Below, piece by piece: positions 9,504-19,001 of a stretch of 64,000 nt of DNA. The notes under the pieces were generated by a model that ran no database searches, was not told the DNA's origin, and worked only from the letters and a program-made list of their open reading frames with translations. Both the position numbers and the translations under genes were made by a program. The stretch spans positions 1 through 64,000 of the IMG/VR virus record IMGVR_UViG_3300009184_005291. One strand, 5' to 3'. Origin of the DNA: a virus. Positions within the stretch are counted from its first letter, which is position 1; each line of letters opens with the position of its first letter.

Positions 9504-9533
9504 AAAAAGAAGGGTTATTTACCCTTCTTTTTT
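9504..9533. terminator. bidirectional terminator
   Basis: AAGAAGGGT-tattt-ACCCTTCTT with flanking A and T runs, between the convergent genes ending at 9446 and 9515; it overlaps the last codons of clpP. Confidence 0.8.
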
Positions 9534-10195
9534 GATTTTACGACCTCGTCAATGATACCGTATTCGAGAGCTTGGTTACTATCCAACCACAAATCTCTAC
9601 TAGCATCAATTTTAACTTGTTCAGGGTCTTTCCCACAGAACTCACCAAGTAAACCAAATAGAATATCATTCAATTTAGCCCACTCTCTCATTGTGATTTC
9701 CGCATCTTGGATGTTACCCACAGCACCACCCGAAGATTGGTGTAGCATTGTTCTAGAGTACTTCAAAGAACTTCTTTTTCCTTTGGTACCTGCTCCCAAC
9801 AATACAGACCCCATAGATGCCGCCATTCCTGTGTTCACAGTTCTAATGTCACAAGCAATGTAGTTCATTACATCAACCATAGATAGTCCTGATTTCACAC
9901 TTCCACCTGGACTGTCAATGTGCATCGTGATATCGGTTTTATCAACATTGTCCATGAACATCAATTGTGCCTGTACAATAGTTGACATTCTATCATCGAC
10001 AGGGCCAGCAACCCAAATGATTCTGTCTCTCATCAATCTTGAGAAGATGTCAATCTGAGTAGCTCTCATCTCTCTTTCTTCAAGAATGTAAGGAGTCATA
10101 GACGACTGAATTTGATTTGAGAAGTTGTGAAGATCCAATGATCCTTTACCCAAATGGTTTACGTAATAATTTTGAAATTCTTGTCCGATGTTCAT
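9515..10195 (-). CDS. clpP: ClpP protease
   Basis: Proteolytic subunit of the Clp system. The catalytic triad is visible as Ser127 (AASMGS), His152 (MLHQSSGG) and Asp201 (SRDLWL). HIDSPGGSV forms the usual oxyanion-region strand, and the end carries ALEYGIIDEV. Length 226 aa is normal to slightly long, with about 25 extra N-terminal residues. Its likely unfoldase is the ClpC-like protein at 26225, which keeps a ClpP-docking loop. May degrade tmRNA-tagged or host regulatory proteins during infection (inference). Confidence 0.93.
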   Translation of the reverse strand: MNIGQEFQNYYVNHLGKGSLDLHNFSNQIQSSMTPYILEEREMRATQIDIFSRLMRDRIIWVAGPVDDRMSTIVQAQLMFMDNVDKTDITMHIDSPGGSVKSGLSMVDVMNYIACDIRTVNTGMAASMGSVLLGAGTKGKRSSLKYSRTMLHQSSGGAVGNIQDAEITMREWAKLNDILFGLLGEFCGKDPEQVKIDASRDLWLDSNQALEYGIIDEVVKSKKKGK

Positions 10196-10234
10196 ATCTG
10201 TTTTATTTTTTACAAAGTTAATACATTTTTTAGT

Positions 10235-10720
10235 TTATCCAAAAGATTTTTGAAATTCTGTCCAAACGTTTAATAAGACCACGTCATCGTACATTATAGG
10301 TGGTTCATATGCTGACCTACTCATTGACATTTTAGCCTCCTCAGGGGTCTTATTATCCTTCTGTCGATTACATTTGGAACAACAAGTTACCAAGTTTGTC
10401 CATTCGTTTGTTCCTCCTCTAGATTTTGGTAATACGTGGTCTAAGGTTAAATGTTTTTTTGACCCACAATAAACACATTCATATCCATCTCTTTTGTAGA
10501 TTCTGCTACGGTTTGGTTTATTCAATCTTGTCCTATGTTTGATATATTTCAAAAGACGTATGATAACTGGTCGTACGTATTTGTTATACCCAGTAATGAT
10601 TGGATTTTCCCCAGATCTTACAATTTCTGCCTTACCTTTGGTGACCAACACAAATCCTCTATGAACACTTGTCACGTTCAAGGGTGTGTAGTCAGAATTC
10701 AAAACTAATACTCTACTCAT
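10235..10720 (-). CDS. HNH endonuclease, Bacteroidota type
   Basis: 161 aa. An N-terminal strand-rich segment (VLVLNSDYTPLN) precedes an HNH/zinc finger: CVYCGSKKHLTLDHVLPKS with CxxC, then DHVLP, then CCSKCNRQK with the second CxxC. The family is common on Bacteroidota chromosomes and in their phages. It may nick DNA in packaging or act as a stand-alone nuclease; it is not next to an intron. Confidence 0.85.
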   Translation of the reverse strand: MSRVLVLNSDYTPLNVTSVHRGFVLVTKGKAEIVRSGENPIITGYNKYVRPVIIRLLKYIKHRTRLNKPNRSRIYKRDGYECVYCGSKKHLTLDHVLPKSRGGTNEWTNLVTCCSKCNRQKDNKTPEEAKMSMSRSAYEPPIMYDDVVLLNVWTEFQKSFG

Positions 10721-10791
10721 TTATCAAATGTTTCAACAAAAGTAATTTATTTTTTTTAGAAACGAAAGTTGTTGTGAATGAAAAATTTTAT

Positions 10792-10799
10792 TACCTTTG
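10792..10799 (+). promoter_or_regulatory. Bacteroidota-type -7 element TACCTTTG
   Basis: Matches TAnnTTTG, with TTG-containing sequence about 20 bases upstream. It lies 75 bases before tRNA-Met and probably drives it. Confidence 0.5.
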
Positions 10800-10845
10800 T
10801 CATGTTGATTTGATGGAAGTACATCGTTGATTTTTACGATAAAGA

Positions 10846-10873
10846 ATATTATCATTGAAAACGAAGATAATAT
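10846..10873 (+). other. inverted repeat abutting tRNA-Met
   Basis: ATATTATC and GATAATAT form a perfect 8-bp hairpin that ends at the base before the tRNA 5' end; perhaps a processing signal. Confidence 0.4.
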
Positions 10874-10945
10874 GGACCCGTAGCTCAGAGGAAGAGCAGC
10901 GCTCTCATAAAGCGAAGGTCGGGATATCATGATTCCCCGGGTCCA
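10874..10945 (+). tRNA. tRNA-Met (CAU)
   Basis: Acceptor GGACCCG pairs with CGGGTCC, the D-stem is GCTC/GAGC, and the anticodon loop is CTCATAA. The T-loop is ATCATGA instead of the usual TTCGAAT type, and the T-stem has one mismatch. CCA is not encoded. It could be an initiator, elongator or lysidine-modified Ile tRNA. Confidence 0.8.
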
Positions 10946-10972
10946 CAAACAATTAAACTAAAACAAACTACA

Positions 10973-11704
10973 ATGAAAATCAAAAAATTAATCCTATCAG
11001 TTGTAACCCTATCCGTATTTTTAATTTCTTGTTCTAAAGAAGAAATTAATGGTAGTGAAATCACTCCTATCAATAATATGGAACATGCGACCATGTCAAC
11101 ATCAAGTATTGGTGGAGAACAAACACCTTTGAGAGCATATATTTTTGTGGAACCAATGTCGAAACATGTGATGATTAAAAACCATTTGAATAAGTTACCA
11201 TTTATTGGAAGACTCCCATTTGTTGGATTTCATGGTGTTAATGCAGGTGCATGGAAAGATAACTTACCAAATTATATTAATATGACTCATTGGATTGATG
11301 GTAGATTACCACAAATTATGCAAGTTGACATTCCCCAAACAAGTGGAGGAATCGATACATTTGGTAATCCTGTTCAAGCTTTCAATTTCAAAACTGTTAA
11401 AATAACAAAAAATACAGTAAATGATAAATTTTCTTGGATTATAGTTCTTATACCAATTAATGCGATGAGTAACGATACAAAAAGACAAAGAAGGATACGT
11501 ATTGATGAAAAGGCGGGTAATATAACAAAATCTTCAACAATTTTTACAACTGATAATGTTATGTCAGAAACTGTGATTAACTATAATGGTAATCGTATTC
11601 CGGCAGGTCAATATAGGGTTTATTCAACTTATCCATCAAGTGGTATGAGACTGAATTTGAACTCAACAAATGATGTTTATATTAGAGGTTTTAGTAACCA
11701 ATAA
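10973..11704 (+). CDS. lipoprotein, 243 aa
   Basis: Signal peptide with lipobox ISCS (KLILSVVTLSVFLISCS) followed by a Ser/Thr-rich linker. The mature domain is beta-rich and looks exported (YIFVEPMSKHVM, IRIDEKAG). No family recognised. It lies between tRNA-Met and tRNA-Thr, separated by 27 and 7 bases, so it may share their transcript. Possible host-surface modifier (inference). Confidence 0.75.
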   Translation: MKIKKLILSVVTLSVFLISCSKEEINGSEITPINNMEHATMSTSSIGGEQTPLRAYIFVEPMSKHVMIKNHLNKLPFIGRLPFVGFHGVNAGAWKDNLPNYINMTHWIDGRLPQIMQVDIPQTSGGIDTFGNPVQAFNFKTVKITKNTVNDKFSWIIVLIPINAMSNDTKRQRRIRIDEKAGNITKSSTIFTTDNVMSETVINYNGNRIPAGQYRVYSTYPSSGMRLNLNSTNDVYIRGFSNQ

Positions 11705-11711
11705 TTAATAC

Positions 11712-11786
11712 GCTCCTAAAGCATTGCTGGCGATGCACATGACTTGTAATCATGATAACTTGGTTCGATTCCGAGTGGGAGCTCCA
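11712..11786 (+). tRNA. tRNA-Thr (UGU), CCA encoded
   Basis: Acceptor GCTCCTA/TGGGAGC, anticodon stem CATGA/TCATG with loop CTTGTAA, T-loop TTCGATT. The 3' TCCA is in the DNA. Confidence 0.92.
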
Positions 11787-11788
11787 AC

Positions 11789-11915
11789 AGTACTTACTAC
11801 GCTACCCATAAGAACAGCGTCCCAGGGTAAGTCGTGTACCTCGATGTTAACCGTAAGAACAACACAGAGGTTGTATCGTGATATAAGTGAATAGCCCAAG
11901 GTATAAGCTAAAATC
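11789..11915 (+). ncRNA. structured RNA between tRNA-Thr and tRNA-Ser
   Basis: Directly downstream of tRNA-Thr. An ACTTAC/GTAAGT stem encloses an ACGCT/AGCGT hairpin. It is followed by an ACCTC/GAGGT hairpin and a GTGAT/ATCAC arm. The two loops share TAAGAACA. A terminator ends it. Family unknown. Confidence 0.45.
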
Positions 11916-11920
11916 ACACC

Positions 11921-11965
11921 CCTAACCTCTATTCAAATGACGATTTGATTATGTTAGGTTTTTTT
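11921..11965 (+). terminator. rho-independent terminator
   Basis: CCTAAC/GTTAGG outer stem with inner TCAAAT/ATTTGA stem, followed by seven T. It ends just before tRNA-Ser, which therefore needs its own promoter or readthrough. Confidence 0.8.
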
Positions 11966-12053
11966 GGAGAGATGGCAGAGTTGGCCGATTGCACCTGACT
12001 TGAAATCAGGAGTACCTGTGAGGGTACCGTGGGTTCGAATCCTACTCTCTCCT
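11966..12053 (+). tRNA. tRNA-Ser (UGA)
   Basis: Acceptor GGAGAGA/TCTCTCC, anticodon stem CCTGA/TCAGG with loop CTTGAAA, long variable arm (GTACC/GGTAC), T-loop TTCGAAT. CCA not encoded. Confidence 0.92.
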
Positions 12054-12060
12054 CATCATA

Positions 12061-12155
12061 ATTGTGACGATTCGAAAGAATGACGGAACGGACGCTAAGA
12101 ATGAAATGGAAACTGAAGGATTATCCTTGGAAACAAACCGTACAGACGTTACAAT
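12061..12155 (+). ncRNA. structured RNA after tRNA-Ser
   Basis: A 9-bp closing stem (ATTGTGACG/CGTTACAAT, one G-U) encloses an ATTC-GAAA-GAAT hairpin with a GNRA loop, an ACGG/CCGT stem and an AAGG/CCTT hairpin. A T-rich tract follows. Similar in layout to the elements at 16813 and 18391. No family recognised. Confidence 0.5.
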
Positions 12156-12177
12156 CTTTTTCACAAATTAAATCATA

Positions 12178-12531
12178 ATGGCACATCCAAACTTACATGC
12201 AAAATCATCCGCCAAAAAGTTTGGTGGAAAACCTGAGGACTACATTCATTTACATGAATGGTTAGACGAAACCAAGTCATGGTTTGGTGATTCCTTACAT
12301 AGAATGTTTCGGCACCATAGTGAGGGGATATTCGAAATGGAAAAAAGGTTTGGTACCGAATTCAAAAACTCAGATGGAAAAACGGTTTATACTCGTTATG
12401 TTGGAGAACAACATATCAAGGAAGATTGTAATAACTACATTCCATCAGCCAAAGAATGGGTTAACAACATGATGTCCAATCAAAGACCACAGTGGATGTT
12501 GAAGACCATTAAATTAGAATTCGAAGACTGA
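12178..12531 (+). CDS. DUF6915 family protein
   Basis: 117 aa with the family pattern HAKSSAKKFGGKPEDY near the N-terminus, then a His-rich helix (RMFRHHSEGIFEMEKRFG) and RYVGEQHIKEDC. Function of the family is unknown; it is found in bacteria and phages. The conserved His and Glu residues could bind metal (inference). Lies between an ncRNA and a hypothetical gene. Confidence 0.8.
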   Translation: MAHPNLHAKSSAKKFGGKPEDYIHLHEWLDETKSWFGDSLHRMFRHHSEGIFEMEKRFGTEFKNSDGKTVYTRYVGEQHIKEDCNNYIPSAKEWVNNMMSNQRPQWMLKTIKLEFED

Positions 12532-12542
12532 TATTTATTTGT

Positions 12543-13241
12543 ATGTCACAAAATATATTAACACCAGAAGAAAAAAAATATTTAGGAAAAATATCAAGGT
12601 TTCTTAGATCGATGGGAATGAGATATGGAGAAATTCAATTTGAAATGGAACCGGACCAAGAGGGAATTGCGTACAGTCCAAACGATTTTCCAACTCATTT
12701 TGAAAATAATTATACCGCAGAAATACCGGACGGCCTTGTACCAATATTGAAAAAAATTATTGACTATGTTGATGATGATGGGTTATATAGCGAGGTACCT
12801 TATGATGGTTACCTCATTTATCAAAGATTTGACATTACAATTAATGCTATGTCAGGAGAAATATCTTTAACACACTCCTATAGTTATCAAATTGAGGGAG
12901 GTTCACAAGGTATCGAATACGATGATATGATTGAAGAGTGGGAAGAAAAAGGAGTTTTCAATGATACCGAAATTCCTGAAGACAATTATTTGGTCTTGAA
13001 GTATAATGGAGGTGGAGATAGTGGATACATCGAATCGAATTTTGAGAATGGAGAACCTGTACCAACCGAAGTAGAAGAATGGTGTTATCAACAATTGGAA
13101 GATAACTTCGCAGGCTGGGAGATAAATGAAGGATCTCAAGGTGAATTCCAATTTGATTTTAATGAAAAAACAGTTATATTATCACACGCATACAACATTG
13201 AAGAATCTAGATCCAACACACTGTGGGAAGAAGAATTTTAG
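12543..13241 (+). CDS. acidic hypothetical protein, 232 aa
   Basis: Soluble, acidic and rich in Tyr/Glu (MRYGEIQFEMEPDQEG). No known domain. A GATATTTATTTG sequence combining both promoter types of this genome lies just ahead of its ATG. Spacing of 17 bases to the methyltransferase gene suggests cotranscription. Confidence 0.65.
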   Translation: MSQNILTPEEKKYLGKISRFLRSMGMRYGEIQFEMEPDQEGIAYSPNDFPTHFENNYTAEIPDGLVPILKKIIDYVDDDGLYSEVPYDGYLIYQRFDITINAMSGEISLTHSYSYQIEGGSQGIEYDDMIEEWEEKGVFNDTEIPEDNYLVLKYNGGGDSGYIESNFENGEPVPTEVEEWCYQQLEDNFAGWEINEGSQGEFQFDFNEKTVILSHAYNIEESRSNTLWEEEF

Positions 13242-13258
13242 AATGATTTATTAAATTT

Positions 13259-13909
13259 ATGGTGGAAACAACAATTATCAACGAAGATTTTAGAAACTGC
13301 GACATACCAACAGGATTAACAATAACCGACCCACCTTATAATCAAGAATATTCATACAACGAATACAAAGACAAGTTAACTGAACAGGATTATATTGAGT
13401 TATTATCCAAAATCCCAACTCCTTGTGTCATTATTCATTACCCAGAAGAAACAATCAACTTGTTACCAAAGGCAATAAATGATAAATGTGAACAGGTTGT
13501 TTGTTGGGTGTATAACTCCAACACAGGGAAACAAAGTCGATTGATATCATGGTGGGGTTGTAAGCCGGACTTCAGGAAAGTCAGACAGGAATATAAAAAT
13601 CTCAAAGACAAACGTATTCAAAAAAGAATTGCTGAAGGAAAGACTGGTGCCAAACTTTATGATTGGTGGGAAATTAATCAGGTAAAGAATGTCAGCAAAG
13701 AAAAAACCGAACACCCTTGTCAAATTCCTGAGGAAGTAATCCGAAGAATTATTTTGACAACCGCACAACCAAATCAAACAATTATTGATGTGTTCGGTGG
13801 AAGTGGGACGACAAGTAAGGTAGCTCAAGAGTTGGGATTCAACTCAATTAGTTATGAAATCGATGAGAAGTATTGTGAAATTATGAAACATCGGGTTGAA
13901 AGTATCTGA
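13259..13909 (+). CDS. DNA amino-methyltransferase
   Basis: Transfers methyl from S-adenosylmethionine to adenine N6 or cytosine N4. DPPY (motif IV) occurs near residue 23 and the SAM-binding FGGSGTT motif near residue 180, so the order is that of the beta class. Length, 216 aa, is short, with a small target-recognition part. No restriction partner is adjacent. It may protect phage DNA or act in regulation. tRNA-Leu with its intron follows 26 bases downstream. Confidence 0.88.
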   Translation: MVETTIINEDFRNCDIPTGLTITDPPYNQEYSYNEYKDKLTEQDYIELLSKIPTPCVIIHYPEETINLLPKAINDKCEQVVCWVYNSNTGKQSRLISWWGCKPDFRKVRQEYKNLKDKRIQKRIAEGKTGAKLYDWWEINQVKNVSKEKTEHPCQIPEEVIRRIILTTAQPNQTIIDVFGGSGTTSKVAQELGFNSISYEIDEKYCEIMKHRVESI

Positions 13910-13918
13910 AACTTTCAT

Positions 13919-13926
13919 TATATTTG
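13919..13926 (+). promoter_or_regulatory. Bacteroidota-type -7 element TATATTTG
   Basis: TAnnTTTG match ending 9 bases before the tRNA-Leu 5' end. Confidence 0.6.
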
Positions 13927-13935
13927 TAGAATAAT

Positions 13936-14256
13936 GTCCGGGTGATGAAATCGGTAGACATGCAAGACTTTAGAGGTAGACATGAATACTTTTATTAAAG
14001 TATTAAAGTTTACAAAATTGAGTGCCTGAGGGGAAACCTTCAGAGTAGAATTCCTCAAATTCGGTGAACCTTTTGAAATGGGAATACCGAGCGAAGCCCG
14101 AGAGGGAACGTGTAGAGACTAGACGGGGAACACCTAAATCGAGAGATATGGTGAAGGTATAGTCCAGACCACAAACCGTGAGGGTAGTGAAAACTATAGT
14201 GGTAAGAAAATCTTGTGGCTTAGGCCGTGCGGGTTCAAGTCCCGCCCCGGATACCA
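13936..14256 (+). tRNA. tRNA-Leu (UAA), interrupted by a group I intron
   Basis: Exon 1 is 13936-13970 (acceptor GTCCGGG, ends CTT); exon 2 is 14207-14256 (AAAATCTTG, long variable arm, T-loop TTCAAGT, CCCGGATACCA). Joining them gives anticodon stem CAAGA/TCTTG and loop CTTAAAA, so the intron sits between U34 and A35. CCA is encoded. Confidence 0.9.
13971..14206 (+). other. group I intron, tRNA-Leu(UAA) type
   Basis: A 236-base intron without an ORF. Core elements in order: P-like AATTCGGTGAACC (14058-14070), Q-like ATACCGAGCGAAGCC (14084-14098), R-like GTAGAGACTAGACGG (14112-14126) and S-like AAGGTATAGTCC (14154-14165). The base before the 5' splice site is U and the last intron base is G, as required. 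Elements and insertion site match the cyanobacterial/plastid tRNA-Leu intron group (known family); self-splicing is inferred. Confidence 0.88.
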
Positions 14257-14292
14257 AACACTATCGTTCTTTGGAATAAAGGAGAAAATTAT

Positions 14293-14544
14293 ATGGATTT
14301 AGTATCATTTATTTTAGGAATGTCTATAGTTGTGGTCATTGCTGTGGCAGTGGTTGCGGTTATTGCTTTTGTTAGAGTGAATAAACAGAAGGAAGAAATT
14401 AAACAAATAAATCAGTTTCTCGCAAGAGAAATTGAAAATCAAATGAGAGATCGTGATAGAATTATTGACGATATTTATCGAACAATCGATTCACGACTTG
14501 ATAAACTTGAAAGTAGATTGAACGCCGCAAGGCATAAAGATTAA
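14293..14544 (+). CDS. single-pass membrane protein, 83 aa
   Basis: The ATG at 14293 is preceded by GGAG at a suitable distance, so it is preferred to an upstream ATG that lies inside tRNA-Leu. A strongly hydrophobic segment (about residues 5-27) is followed by a charged coiled-coil-like tail (RDRIIDDIYRTIDSRLDKLE). Possibly a spanin-like or membrane-anchored regulator; function unknown. Confidence 0.7.
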   Translation: MDLVSFILGMSIVVVIAVAVVAVIAFVRVNKQKEEIKQINQFLAREIENQMRDRDRIIDDIYRTIDSRLDKLESRLNAARHKD

Positions 14545-14582
14545 ATAAAAACTTTCAAAGACGATAGTGTTATTCACATATT

Positions 14583-14744
14583 ATGTTCGGATTATTCAAG
14601 AAAAAAACAGAAAAAGAAAAATTACAGGAAACTTATGAGAAAATGATGGCAGATGCTTATAAATTATCTCATACAAACAGAACCGCATCTGACAAACTTC
14701 TGGCTGAAGCCGAAGAACTTGCGAAAAAAATATACGGTCAGTAA
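14583..14744 (+). CDS. Lacal_2735-like small protein (DUF6435), 53 aa
   Basis: MFGLFKKKTEKEKLQ at the start and a helical AYKLSHTNRTASDKL motif are characteristic of a short protein family typical of Flavobacteriia. Function is unknown. It ends six bases before tRNA-Arg. Its presence is good evidence for the host lineage. Confidence 0.75.
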   Translation: MFGLFKKKTEKEKLQETYEKMMADAYKLSHTNRTASDKLLAEAEELAKKIYGQ

Positions 14745-14749
14745 TATTT

Positions 14750-14824
14750 GTCCCCGTAGCTCAGCTGGATAGTAGCGATTGCCTTCTAAGCAATAGGTCA
14801 CACGTTCGAATCGTGTCGGGGATA
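14750..14824 (+). tRNA. tRNA-Arg (UCU)
   Basis: Acceptor GTCCCCG/CGGGGAT, anticodon stem ATTGC/GCAAT with loop CTTCTAA, T-loop TTCGAAT. The D-arm is slightly enlarged. CCA not encoded. Confidence 0.9.
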
Positions 14825-14837
14825 CAAAATATTTCAG

Positions 14838-14845
14838 TATATTTG
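14838..14845 (+). promoter_or_regulatory. Bacteroidota-type -7 element TATATTTG
   Basis: Lies just ahead of the tandem-hairpin RNA at 14853, giving it an apparent promoter of its own. Confidence 0.5.
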
Positions 14846-14852
14846 TATTGTG

Positions 14853-14938
14853 ATTGAGGAGCACGATTTAGATACACAAGCTCAATTACAAACTGGGTGA
14901 CACGGGAACGATTCAGATACTAGTGTTACCCTTTTTTT
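14853..14938 (+). ncRNA. tandem-hairpin RNA ending in a terminator
   Basis: Hairpin 1 is ATTGAG/CTCAAT (14853-14886); hairpin 2 is GGGTGACAC/GTGTTACCC (14895-14931) followed by T7. Their large loops share ACGATTTAGATAC and ACGATTCAGATAC. It has its own promoter and terminator, so it could be an independent small RNA of about 90 bases. Family unknown. Confidence 0.55.
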
Positions 14939-15135
14939 ATTAGATATCAGAATAAATAATTTTACAAAATAAAAATATTTCATACATTAGAAGTACTTAT
15001 CAATACAATGAGAACTACAAGTCAACATATTAACAGTAATAGTCAACAAGAGAATTGTTGTTATGAAAGTATTTGCCCTGTAGTTCGGATGTCATAGAAA
15101 GTAATTTTTTAATTTAAGTTAAATTAAATTTTTAG
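14939..15135. other. AT-rich intergenic stretch
   Basis: No convincing gene. A 29-codon frame at 15008-15097 (MRTTSQHINSN at its start) and an AT-rich imperfect palindrome near 15110 are the only visible structures. Confidence 0.4.
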
Positions 15136-15136
15136 A

Positions 15137-15170
15137 CCCCGAACTCTTAAAAAAAGTTTGGGGTTTTTTT
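15137..15170 (+). terminator. rho-independent terminator
   Basis: CCCCGAAC/GTTTGGGG stem followed by seven T. Confidence 0.85.
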
Positions 15171-15202
15171 ATGACATGTTTTTGTTCTTTGAAATATTGT
15201 AG

Positions 15203-15210
15203 TATCTTTG
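15203..15210 (+). promoter_or_regulatory. Bacteroidota-type promoter TTTG-N18-TATCTTTG
   Basis: Upstream TTTG at 15181-15184 and TATCTTTG at 15203-15210, 13 bases before tRNA-Glu: the clearest host-type promoter in the window. Confidence 0.7.
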
Positions 15211-15222
15211 TAAGACAAACAT

Positions 15223-15296
15223 GCTCCGGTCGTCTAATTGGTTAGGACATCCCCCTTTCACGGGGAAGCTTACGGGTTCGAGTCCCGTCCGGAGTA
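15223..15296 (+). tRNA. tRNA-Glu (UUC)
   Basis: Acceptor GCTCCGG/CCGGAGT, anticodon stem TCCCC/GGGGA with loop CTTTCAC, T-loop TTCGAGT. CCA not encoded. Confidence 0.93.
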
Positions 15297-15301
15297 CTGA
15301 C

Positions 15302-15375
15302 ACGAGAGGCAACCGAAGGCATACTAGACACTGTTTAGGCAATGGGAACGATCACACAGAATACCTCTCTCTCGT
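15302..15375 (+). ncRNA. structured RNA after tRNA-Glu
   Basis: ACGAGAG (15302-15308) pairs with CTCTCGT (15369-15375). The interior contains GGGAACGAT followed by CAGAATAC, close to the loop motif of the RNA at 14853. Starts six bases after tRNA-Glu. Family unknown. Confidence 0.4.
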
Positions 15376-15395
15376 AGGTAAGTTTCAAGTTCTGT

Positions 15396-15426
15396 TGACT
15401 GTGGGGAAAGTCCCACTCTATAGTCA
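15396..15426 (+). other. hairpin overlapping a tRNA-like 5' end
   Basis: TGACT-GTGGG-gaaagt-CCCAC-AGTCA. The right arm is also the first bases of the tRNA-like gene at 15422, so the two folds exclude each other. Confidence 0.4.
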
Positions 15427-15510
15427 GGTGGTGTAATGGTAGCACTCGGTGAAGTAGACGCAGTAATGTAGTCCCAATCCGTAGTACAGGTTCGAATCCT
15501 GTTCTTACTA
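15422..15510 (+). tRNA. tRNA-like gene, isotype unresolved
   Basis: The 5' acceptor AGTCAGG pairs with TCTTACT (one mismatch). The D-arm is of Gln/Gly type (GTGTAATGGTAGCAC) and the T-arm is regular (ACAGG-TTCGAAT-CCTGT). The middle is too long, 44 bases between D-stem and T-stem, and gives no regular anticodon arm. It could be a tRNA with an insert or a decayed gene. Confidence 0.45.
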
Positions 15511-15524
15511 CAAATAAAAAATAT

Positions 15525-15659
15525 ATGAAATGGATTATTAGACAATTTGGAAACGTATGGTGTTTATTTGTACATGGCTTTGTTTTAGATAAACACAAAA
15601 TGCATAAAGCATATGGACCACAAGAATGTCAAAAATGTGGTAGGTGGTGGGATTTATAA
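15525..15659 (+). CDS. small CxxC protein, 44 aa
   Basis: ATG at 15525 with a CQKCGRWW zinc-knuckle-like end and an aromatic N-terminal half (WCLFVHGFVL). Short but uninterrupted, between a tRNA-like gene and the next small gene. Function unknown. Confidence 0.45.
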   Translation: MKWIIRQFGNVWCLFVHGFVLDKHKMHKAYGPQECQKCGRWWDL

Positions 15660-15666
15660 TAGTCAG

Positions 15667-15891
15667 GTGAAAAAATTAAAAGTTGTGGAAAAAGAAATAA
15701 GTAAAGAAACTGATGAGTTTATTGATAAATTAGACCATCTGTGTTGGGAACATGGCTTTGAAATTTGGCCAACTGACACTATTAACAAAAGAAATGAAGA
15801 CGGCTCATATCCCACCTTTACTATTCATAATATAGGTAGTGGTGAAACAGTAAGATTGATATATGTCGATGGTGACGGAAGAGGTAAATAA
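15667..15891 (+). CDS. hypothetical protein, 74 aa
   Basis: I chose the GTG at 15667, seven bases after the preceding stop. An in-frame ATG at 15613 would overlap the CxxC gene. The N-terminal helix is basic to acidic (KKLKVVEKEISKE), followed by a beta-rich half (TIHNIGSGETVRLIYVDG). No family recognised. Confidence 0.55.
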   Translation: MKKLKVVEKEISKETDEFIDKLDHLCWEHGFEIWPTDTINKRNEDGSYPTFTIHNIGSGETVRLIYVDGDGRGK

Positions 15892-15898
15892 TTAGGCT

Positions 15899-16006
15899 AG
15901 TCAGGTGGCGGAATTGGTAGACGCTAGGGAGTTGGTACAAAAACTCTATCAGATGCATTGATAATGTACCTCATACATCATACAGGTTCGAATCCGGTTC
16001 TAACTA
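15899..16006 (+). tRNA. tRNA-like gene with long insert, isotype unresolved
   Basis: The 5' acceptor AGTCAGG (same as the gene at 15422) pairs with TCTAACT. The D-arm is Leu-type (GGCGGAATTGGTAGACGC). An arm GAGTT/AACTC has an 8-base loop (GGTACAAA) lacking a normal U33-anticodon frame. Two extra hairpins (ATCA/TGAT, ATGTA/TACAT) sit in the variable region. T-loop TTCGAAT. Confidence 0.5.
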
Positions 16007-16078
16007 CGCAAAAAACAAATAAGATGGAGTTTCTTTACCCTTTCGAGGATGAGTTTTAGAAATCTAAATTATTATATG

Positions 16079-16149
16079 GTGGCCGTAGCCTAGTGGGAGG
16101 GCGGAAGTTTGTGGCACTTCAGGTAAGAGTTCGATTCTCTTCGGTCACA
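16079..16149 (+). tRNA. tRNA-His (GUG)
   Basis: Acceptor GTGGCCG/CGGTCAC, with a G just upstream that could be G-1, the tRNA-His identity base. Anticodon stem GAAGT/ACTTC with loop TTGTGGC, T-loop TTCGATT. Position 73 is A, not the usual C. Confidence 0.88.
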
Positions 16150-16154
16150 CAACA

Positions 16155-16220
16155 GTCAGGTGGTGTAAATGGCAGCACACAGTAGTTAACTGAGGAGCGG
16201 GTTAGAAACCCGTCCTGACA
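16155..16220 (+). tRNA. tRNA-Asn-like (GUU), atypical
   Basis: Acceptor GTCAGG/CCTGAC, T-arm CGGG-TTAGAAA-CCCG. The best anticodon arm is CACAG/CTGAG with loop TAGTTAA, giving GUU but with A instead of the invariant U33 and one A-A mismatch. Confidence 0.5.
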
Positions 16221-16230
16221 CCTTATCAAT

Positions 16231-16304
16231 GGTCAGATACCCAAGTGGCTTAAGGGGCTTGTCTGCAAAACAAGTATCCATCGGTTCGAATCCGATTCTG
16301 ACCT
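16231..16304 (+). tRNA. tRNA-Cys (GCA)
   Basis: Acceptor GGTCAGA/TCTGACC, discriminator U as expected for Cys, anticodon stem CTTGT/ACAAG with loop CTGCAAA, T-loop TTCGAAT. Confidence 0.92.
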
Positions 16305-16322
16305 CATTTAATTAATTAAAAT

Positions 16323-16739
16323 ATGAAAATTGTAATTGTAAGCGGTTATTTTAATCCTGTTCATAAGGGACATATTGAATATTTCAATAAGTCCAAAGAA
16401 CATGGTGATAAACTCTATGTTATCGTCAATAACGACAAACAGAGAGAGTTGAAAGGTAGTAAAGAATTCCAAGATGAAGATGAAAGAATGTTCATCATCC
16501 AAAACCTTAAAATGGTTGATAGAGTATTTCTTTCAGTTGACACAGATCGAACTGTGTGTAAGACAATCGAATTGATCCATTCTTTTGGGGATAGGGACGA
16601 CGAATTCTTATTTGCCAATGGTGGGGACCAAAACAATAATAGCATCCCTGAGACACCTATTTGTGATTGGTTGGGGGTTAAATTGATTGATGGACTTGGA
16701 GATAAAATCCAATCTTCATCTTGGTTGTTGAAGAAGTAA
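16323..16739 (+). CDS. cytidylyltransferase-family nucleotidylyltransferase
   Basis: 138 aa with the HxGH signature (FNPVHKGHIEYF) at about residues 11-22, typical of enzymes that join a nucleotide to a phosphorylated substrate (glycerol-3-phosphate cytidylyltransferase, pantetheine-phosphate adenylyltransferase and relatives). The C-terminal ISSTx loop is replaced by IQSSSWLLKK, near the usual place. Substrate cannot be told. It lies inside the tRNA array and ends immediately before tRNA-Trp, so both may be on one transcript. Confidence 0.85.
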   Translation: MKIVIVSGYFNPVHKGHIEYFNKSKEHGDKLYVIVNNDKQRELKGSKEFQDEDERMFIIQNLKMVDRVFLSVDTDRTVCKTIELIHSFGDRDDEFLFANGGDQNNNSIPETPICDWLGVKLIDGLGDKIQSSSWLLKK

Positions 16740-16810
16740 ACATCTATGGTGAAATGGCATCATACCGGATTCCAAACCCGTTGTTCCAAGTTCGAGTCTT
16801 GGTGGGTGTG
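16740..16810 (+). tRNA. tRNA-Trp (CCA)
   Basis: Acceptor ACATCTA/TGGGTGT, discriminator G as in Trp tRNAs, anticodon region ATTCCAAA read as CCA, T-arm CCAAG-TTCGAGT-CTTGG. The anticodon stem is irregular; Gly(UCC) is the alternative reading. Confidence 0.75.
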
Positions 16811-16812
16811 CA

Positions 16813-16903
16813 AAATGTAAACTTCAGTACCCACACAGCAGTGGAGATGGGCTAAGTTAGATACGATTCCTCGTAGCTGGGAGTAGAATGCTGAAGAACA
16901 TTT
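16813..16903 (+). ncRNA. multibranched RNA after tRNA-Trp
   Basis: AAATGT/ACATTT plus CTTCAG/CTGAAG form a 12-bp closing stem. Inside are a CCAC-acagca-GTGG hairpin and a TACGA-ttcc-TCGTA hairpin. It starts two bases after tRNA-Trp. Same general layout as the elements at 12061 and 18391; no known family. Confidence 0.55.
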
Positions 16904-16910
16904 ATAGGTT

Positions 16911-16989
16911 GATTGGGGAAGGAATGTATGTTAACCTGATGATGGAGGTGGTACATTTGGAGTTTGGAATCATCGTAGTAATGCCAATC
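16911..16989 (+). ncRNA. second structured segment
   Basis: GATTGG (16911-16916) pairs with CCAATC (16984-16989); the segment follows directly on the previous one and precedes a terminator. An internal CTGATGA resembles hammerhead core sequence, but the rest of that core is absent. Confidence 0.35.
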
Positions 16990-16991
16990 GT

Positions 16992-17026
16992 AAAAGGAGA
17001 TGTCCACTGAACCATCTTCTCCTTTT
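16992..17026 (+). terminator. rho-independent terminator
   Basis: AAAAGGAGATG pairs with CATCTTCTCCTTTT; ends the tRNA-Trp/ncRNA transcript. Confidence 0.75.
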
Positions 17027-17077
17027 CCTAATCTTTCAAAAAAAAATAAATAATTTTTTATTTTGATAGAAAAGTTT

Positions 17078-17085
17078 TATCTTTG
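17078..17085 (+). promoter_or_regulatory. Bacteroidota-type -7 element TATCTTTG
   Basis: Perfect TAnnTTTG 16 bases before the HNH start. Confidence 0.6.
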
Positions 17086-17101
17086 TCTAAAATAATAAAT
17101 T

Positions 17102-17530
17102 ATGACCATTTCTGAGACACAAAAAAATAAATTTTATGAGTTAGGGAATACATTACCAAAATGTGTAAATCCTGGATGTGAAAATGATGTTGCAGTCAGA
17201 AACTGGGGAAATTGGTCATTCAAATCAGAATGTTCTCGGTGTCAATCAGACAGAAAAAAGGGATTAATAAGGGAGGGTATCACAATTCATAAAAAAGAAT
17301 ATTGTGAAAATATTGACGGTCATTTAGGATTCAAATGCCCTGTTCCCACAAAAGAAAGTTGGAAAGGGTTTGAAATAGGATGTTTAGATTTGGACCACAT
17401 AAATGGAGACCATAATAATAATTCAATTGAAAATGTTAAAACATATTGTAAATTGTGCCATAATAAAAAGAGCGTCGAAAGCGGCGATTGTTCTAATAAA
17501 AAAAAATCCGCAAGAATTTTTAATCACTAA
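17102..17530 (+). CDS. HNH endonuclease, likely partner of the methyltransferase
   Basis: 142 aa. Zinc-binding CVNPGCEND and CSRCQSDRKK pairs precede the HNH core LDLDHINGDHNNNS and CKLCHNKKS. Its stop overlaps the methyltransferase start by one base (TAATG), giving tight coupling. The pair resembles a small restriction-modification unit, or a homing-type nuclease with a protective methylase. Recognition site unknown. Confidence 0.78.
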   Translation: MTISETQKNKFYELGNTLPKCVNPGCENDVAVRNWGNWSFKSECSRCQSDRKKGLIREGITIHKKEYCENIDGHLGFKCPVPTKESWKGFEIGCLDLDHINGDHNNNSIENVKTYCKLCHNKKSVESGDCSNKKKSARIFNH

Positions 17531-18327
17531 TGGAACAAAAAATTATTCATGAAGATTGTATTCAGGGGCTTAAAAAAATAAAAAATGAGATTATAAATCT
17601 AACATGGACATCACCACCATATTATAACGCTAAATCATATAGTGAATGGCCAACATATCAAGACTATCTTGATTTCTTAAAAGATGTTTTCTCTGAAGTT
17701 TTTAGAGTTACTTTGCCAGGTAGAATGTGTATTGTGAATCTTTCACCTGTAATTGTTCAAAGAGAATCTAGATCACATGAAAGTAAAAGATTGGCAATCC
17801 CTTTTCATTTTTTCACAATTATGGAATCTTTGGGTTGGAAATATATTGATGATATTGTTTGGGTTAAACCCGAAGGTTCTGCCATAAATAGAAACGGGGG
17901 GTTTTATCAACATCGTAAACCTGTTGCGTATAAACCTAATTTAGTATCTGAAACTATTTTTGTATTTCAAAAACCAGCGAATTTTTTGATAGACAAAATT
18001 GTTAGGTCATATAATGGTGAAGATTTGGAAAAATCATTAGTTAAAGGTCACTATGAAAGGAGTAATGTTTGGTTAATCAACCCTGAAACAAAATCAAAAC
18101 ATTTAGCTCCATACCCTGAAAAACTATCGGATAATATAATCCAATATTATTCTTTCTACGGAGATATTGTTTTAGACCCTTTTTTGGGATCAGGAACAAC
18201 TTTACTTTCCTGTGAAAAATATGGTAGGAATGGTATTGGTTATGAAATTCATAAGGAATATGTGGAAATGTCTGAAAAAAGAATAGAAGAATATAGAAAG
18301 AACAATAATCAACAAGAATTATTTTAA
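17530..18327 (+). CDS. DNA methyltransferase, N4-cytosine/N6-adenine type
   Basis: 265 aa. Motif IV TSPPYY (about residue 28), and SAM-binding DPFLGSGTT near residue 217, in the order of the beta class; SPPY is common among N4-cytosine enzymes. KIIHEDC at the start is the usual opening of phage and R-M methylases. Coupled to the upstream HNH gene. A host-type promoter lies ahead of the pair. Confidence 0.88.
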   Translation: MEQKIIHEDCIQGLKKIKNEIINLTWTSPPYYNAKSYSEWPTYQDYLDFLKDVFSEVFRVTLPGRMCIVNLSPVIVQRESRSHESKRLAIPFHFFTIMESLGWKYIDDIVWVKPEGSAINRNGGFYQHRKPVAYKPNLVSETIFVFQKPANFLIDKIVRSYNGEDLEKSLVKGHYERSNVWLINPETKSKHLAPYPEKLSDNIIQYYSFYGDIVLDPFLGSGTTLLSCEKYGRNGIGYEIHKEYVEMSEKRIEEYRKNNNQQELF

Positions 18328-18337
18328 GAAAACTTAC

Positions 18338-18345
18338 TATCTTTG
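18338..18345 (+). promoter_or_regulatory. Bacteroidota-type -7 element TATCTTTG
   Basis: TAnnTTTG just after the methyltransferase stop; probably drives the tRNA-Gln to tRNA-Ile group. Confidence 0.55.
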
Positions 18346-18389
18346 TCGCGATTTGGACTCTACAGCAGGTTCGAGTCCTATCGGTCCCA
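18346..18389 (+). pseudogene. 3' remnant of a tRNA
   Basis: Ends AGGTTCGAGTCCT-atcggtccca, like a T-arm plus acceptor 3' strand, but no matching 5' half lies upstream. Probably a decayed tRNA. Confidence 0.4.
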
Positions 18390-18390
18390 C

Positions 18391-18471
18391 AAGACAGACA
18401 CACGCTTCCCACGGTGTTAAAGTACAAGGATAATGAAGAGAATAATACGTCTCCTAAGGTCTGTCTAAACT
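18391..18471 (+). ncRNA. duplicated structured RNA, copy 1
   Basis: AGACAGAC (18392-18399) pairs with GTCTGTCT (18459-18466). Inside are an ACAC/GTGT hairpin and an AGGA/TCCT arm. All 81 bases are identical to 19644-19724. It directly precedes tRNA-Gln. Family unknown. Confidence 0.6.
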
Positions 18472-18541
18472 GTCTCATGGTGTAACGGTAGCACAAGTCA
18501 CTTTGGTTGACTTAGTTCAGGTTCGAATCCTGATGAGATAT
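18471..18541 (+). tRNA. tRNA-Gln (UUG)
   Basis: U1-A72 acceptor TGTCTCA/TGAGATA, a feature of Gln tRNAs. D-arm GTGTAACGGTAGCAC, anticodon stem AGTCA/TGACT with loop CTTTGGT, T-arm TCAGG-TTCGAAT-CCTGA. Confidence 0.9.
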
Positions 18542-18547
18542 CAAGTT

Positions 18548-18594
18548 ATTCATGTTCCAAAACATGAAAAAACAGTAAGTTTTGGAACATGAAT
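18548..18594. repeat. perfect 16-bp inverted repeat
   Basis: ATTCATGTTCCAAAAC (18548-18563) and its exact complement (18579-18594) with a 15-base loop, filling the gap between tRNA-Gln and tRNA-Ser. There is no T tract, so it is not an ordinary terminator. Confidence 0.8.
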
Positions 18595-18679
18595 AGAGAA
18601 TTGCCTGAGTGGTTAAAGGAGCAGATTGCTAATCTGTCATCTCGAAAGGGATGCATTGGTTCGAATCCAATATTCTCTG
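18595..18679 (+). tRNA. tRNA-Ser (GCU)
   Basis: Acceptor AGAGAAT/ATTCTCT, discriminator G, anticodon stem CAGA/TCTG with loop TTGCTAA, long variable arm (CATC/GATG), T-loop TTCGAAT. Confidence 0.92.
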
Positions 18680-18684
18680 CATTT

Positions 18685-18827
18685 TGTAAGGTGTTGAAAT
18701 TGGCAGACAATCCCCGCCTGTCTCGTGGGGGAGGATCATCTGATAAACGAAGGATAATGGGTTGACCACAATCATGTAATGTCCTTTGGCTAAAGACCTC
18801 GTGGTGGTTCGAATCCATCTCTTACAG
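18685..18827 (+). tRNA. tRNA-Asp (GUC) with about 70-base variable-region insert
   Basis: Acceptor TGTAAGG/TCTTACA, discriminator G as in Asp. Anticodon stem CCCGC/GTGGG with loop CTGTCTC, close to ordinary Asp anticodon arms. T-arm GGTGG-TTCGAAT-CCATC. The D-arm is of Leu type. Between anticodon stem and T-stem lie about 70 bases with GAGG/CCTC, AAGGA/TCCTT and CTTT/AAAG pairings instead of the usual 5. Confidence 0.65.
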
Positions 18828-18836
18828 CATAAAAAA

Positions 18837-18910
18837 GCGGGTATAGCTCAATTGGCTAGAGTGCCGTCCTTCCAAGTCGGAAGTTGTGAGTTCGAATCTC
18901 ACTACCCGCT
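18837..18910 (+). tRNA. tRNA-Gly (UCC)
   Basis: Acceptor GCGGGTA/TACCCGC, discriminator U as in Gly, anticodon loop CTTCCAA, T-arm GTGAG-TTCGAAT-CTCAC. Confidence 0.92.
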
Positions 18911-18926
18911 CTTTTACTTACAATAA

Positions 18927-19000
18927 TGGAATATAGCTCAGTTGGTTAGAGCGCTATCCTGATACGGTAGATGTCGGTGGTTCGAGTCCACCTATTCCAA
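18927..19000 (+). tRNA. tRNA-Ile (GAU)
   Basis: Acceptor TGGAATA/TATTCCA, anticodon stem CTATC/GGTAG with loop CTGATAC, T-arm GGTGG-TTCGAGT-CCACC. The next gene's ATG starts two bases later. Confidence 0.92.
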
Positions 19001-19001
19001 C

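What the first reader, a model, noticed from the sequence alone, without database searches (positions are those of the whole stretch)
13936..14256. Group I intron in a phage tRNA-Leu(UAA) at the cyanobacterial/plastid site
Seen: exons 13936-13970 and 14207-14256 join to a complete tRNA-Leu with loop CTTAAAA. A 236-base intron lies between U34 and A35. It has P-, Q-, R- and S-like core segments in the right order and spacing, U before the 5' site and G at the 3' end, and no ORF. Known: this position and core type mark the ancient tRNA-Leu intron of cyanobacteria and plastids. A copy in a phage that infects Bacteroidota would be a new vehicle for that intron.
Basis: partly seen in the sequence, partly recalled or inferred. 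Interest (0 to 1): 0.9.

Follow-up and report, generated by a model that had tools for sequence, protein, structure and literature searches.

The report
Self-splicing intron in a phage tRNA-Leu
A bacterial virus carries a leucine tRNA gene split by a 236-base RNA that should cut itself out; the element is real and recently acquired, and it belongs to a little-noticed but common pool of such introns shared by phages, plasmids and bacterial chromosomes rather than being a special copy of the cyanobacterial/plastid one.

Summary
Window 13936-13970 + 14207-14256 is a tRNA-Leu(UAA), and 13971-14206 is a group I intron: an Rfam RF00028 match, and a 41-sequence alignment in which 98.4% of proposed pairs form and 32 of 52 pairs covary, including the P3/P7 pseudoknot. 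Close phage relatives hold the same tRNA at the same place without the intron, and DNA alignments break exactly at 13970|14207. This natural empty site shows insertion. Against one relative, 230 bases downstream are identical while the tRNA exons differ by about 14%, so the whole tRNA gene probably arrived with the intron, recently.

The insertion site matches the cyanobacterial/plastid site, but the intron is about 60% identical to classical cyanobacterial copies, 82% to Bacteroidota chromosomal copies and 85% to other phage copies. Phages are not rare carriers: one scan of IMG/VR hit its limit at about 120 contigs, and two GenBank phages carry it unannotated. Relatives encode HNH endonucleases in the P1 loop; this copy looks like an endonuclease-loss derivative. 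It is a new member of a known kind. I found no paper describing group I introns in phage tRNAs. Splicing is inferred, not shown.

The parts
13896..13926 (+). Bacteroidota-type promoter-like site TTG-N20-TATATTTG, ending 10 nt before the tRNA
   Evidence: Pattern match; 7 in the window against 2.06 expected, 0 of 100 shuffles as many. Consensus from general knowledge; not tested functionally.
13936..13970 (+). tRNA-Leu(UAA) 5' exon, ending in U34
   Evidence: ARAGORN on the joined exons; boundary fixed by intronless relatives
13971..14206 (+). 236-nt group I intron, no homing endonuclease
   Evidence: RF00028 50.8 bits, E 3.7e-12; covariation; empty site
13976..14013 (+). Hairpin in the P1 loop (extended P1), where relatives L068 and L146 carry an HNH endonuclease gene
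   Evidence: Minimum-energy fold and comparison of the intron ends with L068 and L146
14020..14022 (+). Internal guide sequence GAG; pairs with exon CUU (13968-13970), with the U-G pair at the 5' splice site
   Evidence: 3-bp P1, 100% paired in 41 sequences; pairs U-G and C-G invariant
14023..14047 (+). P2 hairpin with GAAA loop
   Evidence: 9 of 10 pairs covary
14051..14056 (+). P3 5' strand (partner 14125-14130)
   Evidence: 6 of 6 pairs covary, 100% paired
14060..14091 (+). P4 (P and Q segments) enclosing P5; no P5abc extension
   Evidence: 98-100% paired, 4 pairs covary
14091..14111 (+). P6 with GAGA loop
   Evidence: 100% paired, 3 pairs covary
14117..14121 (+). P7 5' strand (R segment, GACUA); partner S segment 14160-14164 (UAGUC); guanosine-binding helix
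   Evidence: 100% paired; the fifth pair varies A-U, U-A and G-C
14131..14153 (+). P8
   Evidence: 99% paired, 3 of 4 pairs covary
14168..14203 (+). P9 domain with GAAA-capped inner hairpin
   Evidence: 100% paired, 6 pairs covary
14206..14206 (+). Terminal guanosine (omega G)
   Evidence: Invariant in 41 sequences
14207..14256 (+). tRNA-Leu(UAA) 3' exon, starting at A35, with encoded CCA
   Evidence: ARAGORN on the joined exons; boundary from intronless relatives

Best explanation
[quoted passage not shown] The transcript starts just upstream of the tRNA. The intron folds; exon CUU pairs with guide GAG (P1); an external GTP bound at P7 attacks after U34; the freed U34 attacks after the terminal G; and the exons join to give a normal tRNA for UUA/UUG codons (inferred from conserved anatomy, not shown). 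The intron was acquired recently: the whole tRNA gene with its intron replaced an intronless tRNA-Leu at this slot (shown by comparison; the direction is inferred). It belongs to a pool of tRNA-Leu(UAA) introns found in phages, plasmids and bacterial chromosomes. In some of these an HNH endonuclease gene in the P1 loop probably drives homing into intronless tRNA genes. This copy has probably lost that gene and keeps only a P1 hairpin (inferred).
For: tRNA and intron. Structure by covariation with two controls. Exact empty site in six relatives; no RF00028 match in ten relatives' whole records. Replacement tract: window and L283 are identical at 14257-14486 but differ at 12 bases plus 2 missing bases within the tRNA exons. 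Promoter-like site. After splicing in silico, 87 of 88 viral and 92 of 92 genome loci give tRNA-Leu(taa). HNH in long introns; 21 of 86 viral and 17 of 92 genome introns are long. P1-loop flanks shared with L068/L146. Tree. UUA is 45% of Leu codons sampled.
Against: No splicing was observed. The RF00028 score is barely above gathering. The endonuclease-loss step rests on short matches (about 10 nt on each side) in an A+T-rich loop. The tRNA slot is variable among relatives anyway (exon identity 77-100%), so the replaced exons could predate the intron. The host is predicted, not known. The tree rests on about 200 columns and AU tests are not decisive.
Confidence: 0.9

Rival explanations
1. The intron descends directly from the ancient cyanobacterial/plastid tRNA-Leu intron lineage and reached the phage from cyanobacteria.
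For: Same tRNA and same insertion site as cyanobacterial copies; the AU test does not formally reject window plus cyanobacteria as a clade (p 0.18, 0.089). One cyanobacterium, Phormidium tanganyikae, has a copy of the wider type (L257/L348).
Against: 59-63% identity to classical cyanobacterial copies against 82% to Chitinophagaceae and 85% to phage L068. The window sits in a supported clade (95/84) of phage and Bacteroidota introns. A classical cyanobacterial core string has no match in IMG/VR, though that exact 29-mer is a narrow probe.
Confidence: 0.05
2. The intron is dead: it no longer splices and the tRNA gene is a pseudogene.
For: No expression data; the RF00028 score is marginal.
Against: All core pairs form, invariant positions are intact, the tRNA is complete with CCA, and a promoter-like site is retained.
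Confidence: 0.05
3. The intron is kept for a benefit, for example by masking the anticodon loop from host anticodon nucleases until splicing, or by protecting the site from homing endonucleases that cut intronless tRNA-Leu.
For: The site is the anticodon loop; relatives carry HNH genes in the same intron; carriers are many and varied.
Against: Neutral or selfish spread explains the patchy distribution equally well; close relatives lack it; nothing here tests fitness.
Confidence: 0.1
4. Assembly chimera: the intron was joined to the phage contig by mis-assembly.
For: The record is a metagenomic virus contig, and tRNA genes are prone to mis-assembly.
Against: The junctions fall exactly on the splice sites inside a tRNA with matched stems; synteny is unbroken on both sides; the same arrangement recurs independently in the isolated phage Atu_ph07.
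Confidence: 0.03

Closest known systems
Group I introns in tRNA-Leu(UAA) of cyanobacteria and plastids (Anabaena type, IC3; Xu 1990 and Paquin 1997, cited in PMC3984707)
   Same: Same tRNA, same position after U34, short P1 with U-G, no P5abc, ORF-less, 200-300 nt
   Different: Only 59-63% identical in the core; separate clade
tRNA-Leu(UAA) group I introns in Bacteroidota chromosomes (e.g. Sediminibacterium L151) and other phyla
   Same: Same tRNA, same site, same fold; about 82% identical in Chitinophagaceae
   Different: Chromosomal host gene (L151 lies among metabolic genes); a different P1-loop hairpin
Unannotated tRNA-Leu(UAA) introns in Agrobacterium phage Atu_ph07 and the 735-kb huge phage LR756501
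   Same: Same tRNA and site in phage genomes
   Different: 74-77% identical. The Atu_ph07 paper does not mention introns (PMC6102473); nor does the huge-phage paper's main text (PMC7162821)
tRNA introns of Lak megaphages (Devoto 2019, PMC6784885)
   Same: Introns in tRNAs of phages of Bacteroidota (Prevotella); reported as the first in phages
   Different: In tRNA-Tyr, tRNA-Thr and others, called 'enigmatic', with no group I assignment in the main text
Phage group I introns in protein genes (T4 td, Twort and others; Hausner 2014, PMC3984707)
   Same: Group I ribozymes in phages, some with HNH endonucleases
   Different: Hausner 2014 states that all phage introns then known lay in protein genes

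Membership tests
Group I intron | Conserved core P3-P9 with P, Q, R and S segments and the P3/P7 pseudoknot | tested here: met
   RF00028 match; 52-pair structure 98.4% formed, 32 pairs covary
Group I intron | U before the 5' splice site paired to G in the guide sequence; terminal G | tested here: met
   U34-G14020 pair and G14206 invariant in 41 sequences
Group I intron | GTP-dependent self-splicing | not testable with these tools
   Needs in vitro transcription and splicing
tRNA-Leu(UAA) intron at the U34/A35 site | Insertion directly after the first anticodon base of tRNA-Leu(UAA) | tested here: met
   Joined exons; empty-site comparison; same site in cyanobacterial copies
Cyanobacterial/plastid lineage of that intron | Closest kin among cyanobacterial copies | tested here: not met
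   59-63% identity; nests with phage and Bacteroidota copies. AU tests do not reject alternatives
Subgroup IC3 | IC3 core signature and short peripheral domains | tested here: inconclusive
   Short P5 without P5abc, simple P2 and P9, alignable with cyanobacterial introns; no subgroup model was available
Mobile (homing) group I intron | Intron-encoded homing endonuclease | tested here: not met
   No such gene in 13971-14206; relatives L068, L053 and L192 have HNH ORFs
Mobile (homing) group I intron | Presence/absence polymorphism at one site among close relatives | tested here: met
   Intronless at the same slot in close relatives

The most novel reading that the evidence does not exclude
Phage tRNA-Leu(UAA) genes are a major unrecognised reservoir and shuttle for anticodon-loop group I introns, carrying them with HNH endonucleases between phages, conjugative plasmids and bacterial chromosomes of many phyla; the scattered chromosomal copies, perhaps including the ancestor of the cyanobacterial and plastid intron, would then derive from this mobile pool.
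Probability: 0.25. Interest if true: 0.75.

Novelty: new member of a known kind. Interest (0 to 1): 0.5.

Why it matters
The tRNA-Leu(UAA) intron is a textbook case of an 'ancient' intron kept by descent. A phage copy with an exact empty site in near relatives, a short replacement tract and endonuclease-bearing kin in both phages and hosts shows that this very site can be refilled recently by mobile copies. It gives a concrete system to test how such introns move. It also suggests that standard tRNA annotation of phages misses a recurring gene form: tRNAscan-SE's authors say their program was not designed to detect self-splicing introns (PMC8450103), so some phages listed as lacking tRNA-Leu(UAA) may have one.

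Tried and rejected
Default ARAGORN on the window misses the gene, and its intron mode places the intron wrongly as tRNA-Leu(tag). ARAGORN intron mode also gives many spurious 'introns' between neighbouring tRNAs in relatives, none with a group I core; these were ignored. A classical cyanobacterial core string had no hit in IMG/VR. RNAalifold's outermost helix (exon GACU with AGUC) was rejected as an artefact of forbidding the P7 pseudoknot and replaced by P1 plus P7. A donor of the tRNA exons was sought and not found (best 88%, intronless phage tRNAs). A free-standing HNH in the same record that might mobilise the intron was sought: 10235-10720 scores on PF01844, but by eye its sequence does not resemble the intron-encoded HNHs, so no link is claimed. 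BLAST leads in protein genes (Pelagibacter phage and crAss-like phages) are other introns, not tRNA introns.

Full report
OBSERVATION. Joining 13936-13970 to 14207-14256 gives a tRNA-Leu that ARAGORN reads as anticodon TAA, with a complete cloverleaf and an encoded CCA. The 236 bases between them match the Rfam group I model RF00028 at 50.8 bits, E 3.7e-12. That is only just above the gathering score of 50, and the fast whole-window scan did not report it, so the match alone would be thin evidence. Two further lines make it firm.

STRUCTURE. I aligned the intron, with 5 and 6 exon bases, to 40 others from phages and bacteria and counted pairs for a P1-P9 structure with the P3/P7 pseudoknot written in. 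98.4% of cells form standard pairs; 32 of 52 pairs change on both sides. The covariation score is 0.550, against 0.172 for shuffles and at most 0.100 when partners are slid. All six P3 pairs covary, as do most of P2, P8 and the inner P9 hairpin. The P1 pairing CUU/GAG, with U-G at the splice site, the P7 GACU/AGUC pairs and the terminal G are invariant or nearly so. Caveat: the structure was partly derived from this alignment by RNAalifold, which favours it; the shuffle and slide controls and the match to the known group I layout argue that this is not the reason.

NATURAL EMPTY SITE. The gene just upstream (13259-13909, an N6/N4 DNA methylase) has many relatives in IMG/VR, the nearest at 94-99% identity. 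In the nearest ones a tRNA-Leu(TAA) starts about 30 nt after that gene, as in the window, but without an intron. Aligned DNA stops at 13970 and resumes at 14207 in L268, L269, L270, L272, L273 and L283. RF00028 finds nothing in ten relatives' whole records. So the 236 bases are an insertion, and the splice sites deduced from RNA rules equal the insertion points seen in DNA.

HOW IT ARRIVED. Against L283, the 230 bases after the tRNA (14257-14486) are identical, whereas the 85 exon bases differ at 12 positions plus 2 missing bases. The anticodon arm itself is unchanged. The tRNA gene therefore seems to have been replaced together with the intron, which fits co-conversion or exchange of the whole tRNA gene. 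No donor of the exons was found. The slot is variable among relatives anyway (exon identity 77-100%), so exon replacement and intron gain could be separate events.

WHERE ITS RELATIVES ARE. One pattern joining the S segment to the 3' splice site and exon gave about 120 IMG/VR stretches before the scan hit its limit, and 115 in the GTDB genome collection. Where the 5' exon could be located, in-silico splicing gave tRNA-Leu(taa) in 87 of 88 viral and 92 of 92 genome loci. The genome loci are in Bacteroidota, Pseudomonadota, Bdellovibrionota, Acidobacteriota, Bacillota, Chloroflexota, one cyanobacterium and others. Many are metagenome bins, so some contigs could be phages or mis-binned, but L151 (Sediminibacterium) lies among ordinary chromosomal genes. 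Several viral carriers bear phage-family genes. Two GenBank phages also carry the intron in tRNA-Leu(taa), unannotated: the isolate Agrobacterium phage Atu_ph07, where a hypothetical CDS is drawn over part of it, and the 735-kb huge phage LR756501.

NOT PARTICULARLY CYANOBACTERIAL. Real cyanobacterial copies were fetched and sit at the same site. They are 59-63% identical to the window intron; Chitinophagaceae copies are about 82% and phage L068 85%. In a 136-row tree the window lies in a supported set (95/84) of 15 phage and 10 Bacteroidota introns, while classical cyanobacterial introns form a separate long clade. AU tests on these 200 columns are not decisive (p 0.18; p 0.089), so I say 'not supported', not 'excluded'. 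The site match may reflect shared deep ancestry or repeated invasion of one vulnerable site.

ENDONUCLEASE. About a quarter of the viral and a fifth of the genome introns are long, and nearly all of those contain an HNH-type ORF by eye, confirmed by Pfam in three. In L068 and L146, the window's nearest HNH-bearing kin with a similar P1 loop, it sits in that loop. The window's P1 loop has no such gene but keeps an AGGTAGACA start and an AAAGTTTAC end that resemble the two flanks of the HNH gene there, closed by a hairpin. The simplest reading is loss of the endonuclease gene from such a form. The matches are short, so this is a suggestion.

HOST AND EXPRESSION. A Bacteroidota-type promoter-like sequence, TTG-N20-TATATTTG, ends 10 bases before the tRNA; the pattern occurs 7 times in the window against 2.06 expected. 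The nearest annotated isolate terminases are from Flavobacterium phages, at 26% identity. UUA is 45% of the leucine codons counted in 14 large ORFs. A Bacteroidota host is likely but not shown.

KNOWN OR NEW. The ribozyme class, the tRNA and the site are all known. In phages, a 2014 review states that every intron then known lay in protein genes (PMC3984707). Lak megaphages were then reported to have 'enigmatic' introns in other tRNAs, as the first in phages (PMC6784885). A 2026 jumbo-phage survey mentions intronic sequences in tRNAs without classifying them (PMC13037316). I found no paper in this open-access library that describes group I introns in phage tRNA-Leu; subscription papers could not be read. 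Hence 'new member of a known kind', with the wider distribution being the more interesting part.

Noticed in passing
L346:1465-1763 (plasmid pCTX-M3, NC_004464.2): About 1,270 plasmids, mostly of Enterobacteriaceae, hold a related group I intron. In pCTX-M3 (IncL/M) it is a 213-nt intron in a tRNA-Leu(UAA) with no gene listed over it, so conjugative plasmids appear to carry this split tRNA too.
   Followed up: partly
L005:400-750 (LR756511.1, 595-kb phage): The 3' half of an intron-split tRNA follows an HNH-like coding stretch; the 5' exon was not recovered by ARAGORN.
   Followed up: no
L006:482-767 (Microcoleus phage My-WqHQDG): Annotated tRNA-Arg of 286 nt is a tRNA-Arg(CCT) with an intron whose core resembles the window's, another phage tRNA intron at a different tRNA.
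   Followed up: partly
L024, reverse strand, about 1500-1570: A viral tRNA-Leu with a roughly 30-nt insert in the anticodon loop, far too short for a group I intron.
   Followed up: no
L004:547-729 and L007:546-726: Marine podovirus capsid genes (Pelagibacter phage HTVC120P and an uncultured one) seem to be split by group I introns; the HTVC120P core is 74% identical to the window's.
   Followed up: no
window 9515-19001: A cluster of about 14 tRNAs interleaved with small genes, including a Clp protease (9515-10195), an HNH protein (10235-10720) and two N6/N4 DNA methylases; the cluster is rearranged among relatives.
   Followed up: no
window 10874-10945: A tRNA found by Rfam (47.5 bits) but missed by default ARAGORN.
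   Followed up: no
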